This document shows, piece after piece, positions 32,978-33,609 of a stretch of 33,685 nucleotides of DNA. This DNA comes from a virus. The translations under genes were made by a program, and so were the position numbers. The DNA is taken from positions 1-33,685 of IMG/VR virus record IMGVR_UViG_3300032084_000083. One strand, given 5' to 3'. Numbering within the stretch: the stretch's first letter is position 1; every line of letters starts with the position of its first letter. The notes under the pieces were generated by a model, which was not told the origin of the DNA, made no database searches, and saw only the letters and a list, made by a program, of their open reading frames with translations.

Positions 32978-33005
32978 ATTATATCCATGATCTTTCATCT
33001 GTCAA
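32978..33005 (-). promoter_or_regulatory. Consensus sigma70 promoter for the replication operon
   Basis: Minus strand TTGACA (33005-33000), a 16-base spacer, TATAAT (32983-32978): both hexamers perfect, spacing one short of optimal. The -35 box overlaps the TGA stop of the upstream gene. It lies in the 71-base gap ahead of the primase-helicase, the largest non-coding gap in the arm. Confidence 0.8.
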
Positions 33006-33586
33006 CACCTTTTTTCATGCTTACCGTTAATTAAATTTAACACACTCTCAAAATAGTCTATTAAATTCTCAGGTGTATACTCTCTTTGATATTGAGTACA
33101 TCTTGTTGTACCTTTAACATTGCCGCAGATTGATCTTAACTTTCCTTTCTCACAGTAATGTAATGTTTCATCCTTCGGCGGTAACTCAGGCAATTCATCC
33201 CTATCAATTCCACAGATATAAAGTTTAGTTTTCTTATGAGCTACATGACCAAAGTCATATTGATCAATTAATATAGTGAATCCACCATATTTATCTACCT
33301 GCCCAACATCTGGTAAATGCTTACCGAATAGCCTAGAACCTGATGGATGTTCTAGGACACCACCGTTTTGTCTTATCTTTTTTATAGACCATAGGGCAAG
33401 ATCAGCCTCCCCCGGCCTAGCATTATGAGCCATGTGTGATAACTTACCCCACGTTCTACAAGGTGGGTGACAAACCACTGGAAAATATTCTTTATAGGAT
33501 AAAGCATCTCTGCTCGCATCATATACATCCCAATTTTTTCTTTTCTTATAGGCACTATCTTTTCGTACAAACAAAGCTACATACAT
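33002..33586 (-). CDS. PPC-motif protein resembling C5-cytosine methyltransferases, lacking a clear SAM motif
   Basis: A 194-residue protein. 'VVCHPPCRTWGKLSHMA' (PPC at 41-43) resembles catalytic motif IV, 'GGVLEHPSGSRLF' (EHP at 79-81) resembles the ENV motif VI, and 'YDFGHVAHKKTKLYICG' resembles a later target-side block. I see no FxGxG SAM-binding motif, and the protein is far shorter than a full methyltransferase. It may be a methyltransferase-fold protein of unknown chemistry or a base-modification enzyme. The frame is open to 33631, but AGGAAG lies ahead of the ATG at 33586 and a promoter -10 overlaps the upstream part, so I start at 33586. Confidence 0.6.
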   Translation of the reverse strand: MYVALFVRKDSAYKKRKNWDVYDASRDALSYKEYFPVVCHPPCRTWGKLSHMAHNARPGEADLALWSIKKIRQNGGVLEHPSGSRLFGKHLPDVGQVDKYGGFTILIDQYDFGHVAHKKTKLYICGIDRDELPELPPKDETLHYCEKGKLRSICGNVKGTTRCTQYQREYTPENLIDYFESVLNLINGKHEKRC

Positions 33587-33609
33587 TTTATTATCTTCCT
33601 TTCGACTTT

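What the first reader, a model, noticed from the sequence alone, without database searches (positions are those of the whole stretch)
33002..33586. Methyltransferase-like gene with PPC and EHP motifs but no visible SAM site
Motif IV-like and VI-like blocks are present and well spaced, yet the SAM-binding FxGxG motif is missing in a protein of only 194 residues. It is the first gene of the early arm in view, where anti-host and DNA-protection functions cluster. It could be a minimal base-modifying enzyme, half of a split methyltransferase, or a decoy.
Basis: partly seen in the sequence, partly recalled or inferred. Interest (0 to 1): 0.5.

Follow-up and report, generated by a model that had tools for sequence, protein, structure and literature searches.

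The report
Minimal cytosine-methyltransferase-like phage enzyme
A small phage gene makes a protein shaped like the enzymes that tag the DNA base cytosine, with the residues for the chemical step kept but the usual methyl-donor binding motif missing; relatives are widespread in phages and often sit beside the gene that starts phage DNA copying.

Summary
In detail: 33002-33586 (minus) is a real 194-aa gene with HPPC and EHP and no FxGxG. It belongs to phrog_12600, a family without assigned function. Two AlphaFold2 models (pLDDT 88 and 96) match the cytosine-C5 DNA methyltransferase (C5-MTase) fold: M.HaeIII is the best Foldseek hit and all 50 listed PDB hits are C5-MTases. Profile alignment puts HPPC on motif IV (catalytic Cys), EHP on motif VI and FGHxAxKxT on motif VIII. 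None of 108 members has a GxG near the start, and the segment before the Cys is about 25 residues shorter than in a reference C5-MTase. A split enzyme is unlikely: no partner half was found nearby and a 5-gene microvirus carries the gene alone. A decoy is unlikely: Cys43, Glu79, His80, Gln109 and Lys118 are invariant. Best reading: an active minimal C5-type base-modifying enzyme, probably still using SAM through a rebuilt pocket (inferred). In prophages the next gene downstream is often a replication initiator (at least 18 of 51, against 3 of 56 upstream). A homologue, Ebor Gp8, is in print as a 'putative DNA methylase', so this is an unusual variant of a known kind.

The parts
33002..33586 (-). 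phrog_12600-family gene, 194 aa, C5-MTase-like minimal protein
   Evidence: ORF and translation; phrog_12600 E 4.1e-43; fold and motifs
33595..33602 (-). ribosome-binding-like AAAGGAAG upstream of the ATG at 33586
   Evidence: read directly from the sequence
33545..33574 (-). residues 5-14 LFVRKDSAYK: loop after strand 1, where C5-MTases carry motif I (FxGxG); no GxG here
   Evidence: 0 of 108 with GxG; conservation; equivalence to motif I is inferred from the structural range and a profile alignment of zero confidence there
33518..33529 (-). residues 20-23 DVYD: strand 2 ending in a near-invariant acid, motif II-like (inferred)
33503..33511 (-). residues 26-28 RDA: R and A in 109 of 109 aligned members
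   Evidence: exception L324 (T, N at 26, 27)
33458..33469 (-). residues 40-43 HPPC: motif IV with the predicted nucleophile Cys43
33344..33352 (-). residues 79-81 EHP: motif VI (ENV in C5-MTases), Glu79 invariant
33209..33253 (-). residues 112-126 FGHVAHKKTKLYICG: motif VIII-like (YGVPQxRxRxFIVG in C5-MTases)
33071..33085 (-). residues 168-172 REYTP: family signature before the last helix; aligns with RSATP of phrog_757
33008..33070 (-). residues 173-193: C-terminal helix
31338..32930 (-). next gene downstream, primase/helicase (65% to 'DNA primase' of Roseobacter phage CRP-4, 56% to 'dual primase/helicase' of ICBM2)

Best explanation
The gene encodes a single-chain, minimal cytosine-C5-methyltransferase-like enzyme that acts on phage DNA. 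Proposed mechanism: it flips a cytosine out of DNA; Cys43 (HPPC) attacks C6; Glu79 (EHP) holds or protonates N3; His114, Lys118 and Thr120 stand where the QxRxR motif is in C5-MTases; a donor then adds a group, most simply a methyl, at C5. The SAM half is cut down: the FxGxG loop is gone and the segment is about 25 residues shorter, leaving LFxRxDSxYK...DVYD...RDA. I think this most likely still cradles SAM in a rebuilt pocket. Expression with the replication genes would mark new phage DNA and protect it from host restriction. SHOWN: gene, family, predicted fold, motif register, conservation, missing FxGxG, frequent adjacency to replication genes in prophages and small phages. INFERRED: catalysis, SAM as donor, cytosine in DNA as substrate, anti-restriction role.
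For: Models of pLDDT 87.9/pTM 0.85 and 95.9/0.91. Best Foldseek hit M.HaeIII, E 3.6e-5, all 50 listed hits C5-MTases. VIA Z 9.9 with DNMT3A 6brr_A (rmsd 4.7, 176 aligned) and 9.7 with M.HhaI 1fjx_A (rmsd 4.7, 187 aligned), all 50 listed entries C5-MTases. Profile match to 10 genomic C5-MTases: score 30.65, best of 60 column shuffles 25.6; to phrog_757 phage methyltransferases: 34.40 against 22.6. Spacing Cys-Glu and Glu-motif VIII is 36 and 39 residues here, 37 and 44 in the reference C5-MTase L228. In 111 non-redundant members Cys43, His40 and Pro41 in 109 of 109; Glu79, His80, Pro81, Ser84, Gln109, Gly113, His114 and Lys118 in 111 of 111. In a set not fetched by motif patterns, HPPC, EHP, Gln109, Gly113 and Lys118 in 12 of 12 (window included; a 13th row is a fragment). 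Phe6 (97 of 108) and Asp23 (105 of 108) fit a residual cofactor pocket.
Against: No Pfam or NCBIfam match. GxG of motif I present in 0 of 108; motif VIII arginines replaced. The residues before HPPC align to no SAM-binding segment with any confidence. R8, D10 and K14 vary in distant members, so they are weak candidates for cofactor contacts. TM-scores to C5-MTases are modest (0.46 by query length for the best hit). HPPCRxWG was itself a retrieval pattern, so part of the Cys43 count is by construction. No activity data exist; the nanopore result for Ebor could not be assigned to Gp8 by its authors (PMC11980548, passages).
Confidence: 0.55

Rival explanations
1. A C5-MTase fold that has given up SAM: the Cys/Glu core still attacks cytosine (or a modified cytosine) but does another reaction, such as deamination, removal of a C5 group, or use of a different donor.
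For: Catalytic core invariant while motif I is absent. Without SAM, M.SssI deaminates cytosine (PMC3804486, abstract in search listing), and release of hydroxymethyl or carboxyl groups by C5-MTases is discussed in PMC11347137 (passages).
Against: No donor or modified base is known for this phage; Phe6, Asp23 and Asp27 remain conserved, as would suit a residual SAM pocket; the reactions in print are side reactions of SAM-using enzymes.
Confidence: 0.2
2. A catalytically dead DNA-binding protein (decoy) that blocks or mimics a host methyltransferase or restriction enzyme.
For: Missing SAM motif; small size; accessory gene absent from the cultured relatives CRP-4 and ICBM2.
Against: Cys43, Glu79, His80, Gln109 and Lys118 are kept in all members counted, which a dead protein need not do.
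Confidence: 0.1
3. An enzyme of the same chemistry acting on another substrate, such as RNA, single-stranded DNA or a nucleotide, with the small region after motif VIII reading a short or unstructured target.
For: Very small region between motif VIII and the last helix; gene found beside Rep in ssDNA microviruses and a filamentous phage.
Against: No direct evidence for any substrate; many carriers are dsDNA phages.
Confidence: 0.1
4. Half of a split methyltransferase whose SAM-binding half is another protein.
For: The motif I signature is missing.
Against: No motif I-III partner in the flanks of 151 loci except one complete C5-MTase (L165), and none in the window or L001. A microvirus with 5 annotated genes has only capsid, pilot, scaffold and Rep besides it. 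The model begins with strand 1 of the fold, so the N-half is compressed, not cut off. A host-encoded partner was not tested.
Confidence: 0.03

Closest known systems
phrog_12600 / Rhodobacter microvirus Ebor Gp8 ('putative DNA methylase', PMC11980548, passages read)
   Same: Same family: the window protein hits phrog_12600 at 4.1e-43 and the Ebor Gp8 region by tblastn at 38% identity, E 6e-22; same HPPC/EHP/K core
   Different: Ebor Gp8 is shorter (163 aa) and has C, S and L where the window has R8, D10 and K14; its function is also untested
Cytosine-C5 DNA methyltransferases (PF00145; M.HaeIII, M.HhaI, DNMT3)
   Same: Predicted fold; motif IV Cys; motif VI Glu; motif VIII strand in register
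   Different: No FxGxG, no QxRxR, about 25 residues fewer before the Cys, no Pfam match
phrog_757 atypical phage 'DNA methyltransferase/methylase' (1506 phage records by tblastn of one member)
   Same: PPC, KxT and RSATP blocks align with PPC, KxT and REYTP; profile score above all 60 shuffles
   Different: Keeps a reduced motif I (D-x-T-G) and a longer N-terminal half; the window protein itself does not hit phrog_757 at E <= 1

Membership tests
Cytosine-C5 DNA methyltransferase (PF00145) | C5-MTase Rossmann-like fold | tested here: met
   Foldseek best hit M.HaeIII E 3.6e-5; VIA Z 9.9 and 9.7; predicted structure only
Cytosine-C5 DNA methyltransferase (PF00145) | Motif IV PC with catalytic Cys | tested here: met
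   HPPC, Cys43 109 of 109 and 12 of 12 in a set not fetched by motif patterns; register by hhalign
Cytosine-C5 DNA methyltransferase (PF00145) | Motif VI ENV, catalytic Glu | tested here: met
   Glu kept as EHP, 111 of 111; N-V replaced by H-P
Cytosine-C5 DNA methyltransferase (PF00145) | Motif VIII QxRxR | tested here: not met
   Aligned segment reads FGHxAxKxT; no arginine pair
Cytosine-C5 DNA methyltransferase (PF00145) | Motif I FxGxG for SAM | tested here: not met
   0 of 108 members with GxG in the first 25 residues
Cytosine-C5 DNA methyltransferase (PF00145) | Profile match to the family model | tested here: not met
   No PF00145 match for the window protein (E up to 10) or any of 51 members (E up to 1)
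Cytosine-C5 DNA methyltransferase (PF00145) | Motif X GNxV packing on the SAM site | tested here: inconclusive
   C-terminal helix present, but no conserved GN precedes it; GNV at 155-157 is confined to close relatives
Cytosine-C5 DNA methyltransferase (PF00145) | SAM-dependent 5-methylation of cytosine in DNA | not testable with these tools
   needs protein or virion DNA
phrog_12600 | Near full-length profile match | tested here: met
   E 4.1e-43, profile 3-189 of 203
phrog_757 phage DNA methyltransferase | Profile match, with DxTG motif I | tested here: not met
   window protein not listed at E <= 1; one relative, L148, at 0.087
Split C5-MTase | Separately encoded motif I-III partner | tested here: not met
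   none besides one complete C5-MTase in 151 loci; none in the window; host partner not tested

The most novel reading that the evidence does not exclude
A family of C5-MTase-fold enzymes that has dropped the canonical SAM site and works on cytosines exposed during phage DNA replication (rolling-circle or primase-led), using a different donor or a donor-free reaction, and is encoded next to replication genes in ssDNA microviruses, a filamentous phage, prophages with gpA-like nicking proteins and podophages alike.
Probability: 0.2. Interest if true: 0.75.

Novelty: new variant of a known kind. Interest (0 to 1): 0.45.

Why it matters
If active, this would be a very small cytosine-C5-type DNA-modifying enzyme and would show how far the SAM-binding half can be pared down, or replaced, while the base-flipping catalytic half stays fixed. 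A phage with only five annotated genes keeps it, so it should repay its cost. The repeated position beside replication initiators suggests a modification step coupled to replication, which makes a clear prediction about phage DNA that nanopore sequencing or mass spectrometry can test. It would also give a function to a phage family now labelled unknown.

Tried and rejected
Pfam, NCBIfam and PADLOC gave nothing useful; the weak TrkA_C and lectin hits lie far below their cut-offs and were dismissed. PDB sequence searches found nothing significant. Plasmids: no match at E <= 1e-5. I guessed two DNA patterns for other short phage methyltransferases; the first gave two hits, the second four irrelevant short frames; neither was used further. 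phrog_757 in 14 and then 61 genomes mostly gave weak matches to other proteins, several of them ordinary C5-MTases by position; one true member (L255) seeded A4. Extended and global profile alignments gave no confident match for the N-terminal segment.

Split enzyme: rejected as above. A constant accessory partner: rejected, because the neighbours of 42 viral loci differ widely. In that call a homologue of the window primase lay within three ORFs of the gene, on either side, in L001, L013, L018 and L031 only, so the replication link is clear in prophages and small phages, not in most viral contigs examined.

Rows dropped: one search left out sequences under 120 aa and thinned 165 unique ones to 111 at 80% identity; could not place the family ORF in 24 of 80 loci; A5 used 83 of the 107 neighbours listed. 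Neighbour genes came from a simple longest-ORF caller. In one search the Rep models were built from downstream genes, so that count is biased towards them. The four FxGxG regex matches were not inspected one by one; as no member has GxG in its first 25 residues, they lie after the motif I position.

Print: PMC11980548 (passages) calls Ebor Gp8 a putative methylase; PMC9239249 (passages) mentions accessory microviral methyltransferases; PMC13059738 (passages) did not bear on the question. A search for the name phrog_12600 found no paper, and searches listed no paper that I recognised as describing a SAM-site-less family; this is one open library only, and most listed papers were not opened.

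Full report
WHAT IS THERE. The ORF at 33002-33586 on the minus strand is real: 194 aa, ATG at 33586 with an AAAGGAAG ribosome-binding-like stretch. The window is a 33,685-base virus record. Its primase/helicase and DNA polymerase are closest to those of cultured roseobacter podophages (CRP-4 primase 65%; CRP-5 polymerase 62%); CRP-4 and ICBM2 are classed as Cobavirinae. Those two carry other small genes upstream of the primase, and neither is among the 13 phage records with a relative of this protein, so the gene looks like an accessory insert in this lineage.

FAMILY. The protein has no Pfam or NCBIfam match but hits phrog_12600, unknown function, at 4.1e-43. Relatives: 63 viral loci, 511 in a wider scan with the best 80 kept, 86 in bacterial contigs with 80 kept, and 13 of 50,697 phage records. 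In a sample drawn from the class of one carrier, 5 of 369 genomes have a match, the carrier itself (G003) and one fragment (G093) included. Among phages it occurs in Pseudomonas, Caulobacter and Xanthomonas phages and in three microviruses of 4.8-6.6 kb.

CONSERVATION. Over 111 sequences thinned at 80% identity, Cys43, His40 and Pro41 are kept in 109 of 109, and Glu79, His80, Pro81, Ser84, Gln109, Gly113, His114 and Lys118 in 111 of 111. HPPCRxWG was a retrieval pattern, so I checked a set fetched by tblastn or profile: 12 rows with the region, window included, all keep HPPC, EHP, Gln109, Gly113 and Lys118; His114 is F in one. The N-terminal R8, D10 and K14 are not kept in distant members. dN/dS is about 0.08-0.12 for the three pairs with unsaturated dS.

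FOLD. AlphaFold2 with 38 sequences gave pLDDT 87.9 and pTM 0.85; with 51 more diverse ones 95.9 and 0.91. Foldseek ranks M.HaeIII first (E 1.5e-4, then 3.6e-5) and all 50 listed PDB hits are C5-MTases in both runs. In the viral library most named hits near the top are cytosine or SAM-dependent methyltransferases. VIA-align gives Z 9.9 to DNMT3A (6brr_A, rmsd 4.7, 176 aligned) and 9.7 to M.HhaI (1fjx_A, rmsd 4.7, 187 aligned); all 50 listed entries are C5-MTases. These Z values are above the 7-8 that the tool calls typical of models without a clear match, but not far above, so the sequence evidence matters.

MOTIFS. A profile of 51 members aligned with 10 genomic C5-MTases (E 0.0017 for one comparison) puts HPPC on PPC of motif IV, EHP beside ENV of motif VI (within a few columns) and FGHxAxKxTxLYIxG on YGVPQxRxRxFIVG of motif VIII. 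The score, 30.65, exceeds that of all 60 column shuffles (maximum 25.6); against phrog_757 it is 34.40 (maximum 22.6). Spacing Cys-Glu-motif VIII is 36 and 39 residues here, 37 and 44 in the reference C5-MTase. From the Phe of the first strand to the Cys there are 37 residues here and about 63 in that reference. GxG in the first 25 residues: 0 of 108. Motif names and M.HhaI roles are recalled, not from a call.

HOW IT PROBABLY WORKS. By the known C5-MTase mechanism (recalled), Cys attacks C6 of a flipped cytosine and Glu contacts N3, so that C5 can take a group. Those residues are invariant here, which argues for catalysis. The donor is the open question. The shortened N-terminal segment keeps near-invariant Phe6, Tyr13 and Asp23 and invariant Arg26 and Ala28 and could form a compact SAM pocket, but no tool here tested that and no alignment supports it with confidence. 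I put SAM-dependent C5 modification first and a SAM-free reaction second.

NEIGHBOURS. In 51 prophage-type loci with a same-strand downstream gene, at least 18 of those genes are replication initiators: phrog_91 nicking 7, phrog_453 6, phrog_702 4 and L195 1. Of 56 upstream genes 3 are. Fisher p = 1.4e-4, not corrected for relatedness of the prophages. As a second look, of 56 loci where the gene was placed, 19 have a Rep-like ORF in the flanks, and it is the next same-strand gene downstream in 14 and the next upstream in 3; those models were built from downstream genes. In the three microviruses the next annotated gene is Rep, in filamentous phage fSU1 a putative replication protein, in Caulobacter phage Jess A a primase, and in the window the primase/helicase. 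Against this, most of the 42 viral loci show no such neighbour, Meltemi has terminase next, and Persinger has small ORFs next.

PRINT. Ebor Gp8, a family member, is called a putative DNA methylase on HHpred evidence covering residues 37-160; its authors found modified bases but could not assign them to Gp8 (PMC11980548, passages). So the link to methylases is not new; the absence of motif I across the family and the replication neighbourhood were not seen in the searches named.

VERDICT. This is a minimal C5-MTase-like protein, not a split half and probably not a decoy. By strict membership it fails two defining features of the C5-MTase family (motif I, motif VIII arginines) and its Pfam model, so I do not file it as a member; it most likely works like one.

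Noticed in passing
L137-L216 (prophage-type loci): The gene directly downstream is often a replication initiator of several PHROG types (91, 453, 702): at least 18 of 51 downstream against 3 of 56 upstream.
   Followed up: partly
L179:8961-9575: A second, distant family member lies about 350 bp downstream of the first on the same strand, with HPPCQ in place of HPPCR: a tandem pair of paralogues.
   Followed up: no
L192:58-657 and L156:7989-8567: Two bacterial copies are interrupted by a stop codon in the middle of the gene.
   Followed up: no
L001: A 12,981-bp contig identical to the window over its last 1,129 bases continues past the window's right edge and carries, on the other strand, a long ORF that looks like a tail protein, so it may link the two ends of this phage genome.
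   Followed up: no
L325:4279-5519: In Caudoviricetes cta39025 the unannotated family gene directly follows an annotated DNA N6-adenine methyltransferase.
   Followed up: no
L019, L022, L023, L025, L026, L028: One subgroup carries a related ORF of about 83 aa directly after the gene in six loci; function unknown.
   Followed up: no
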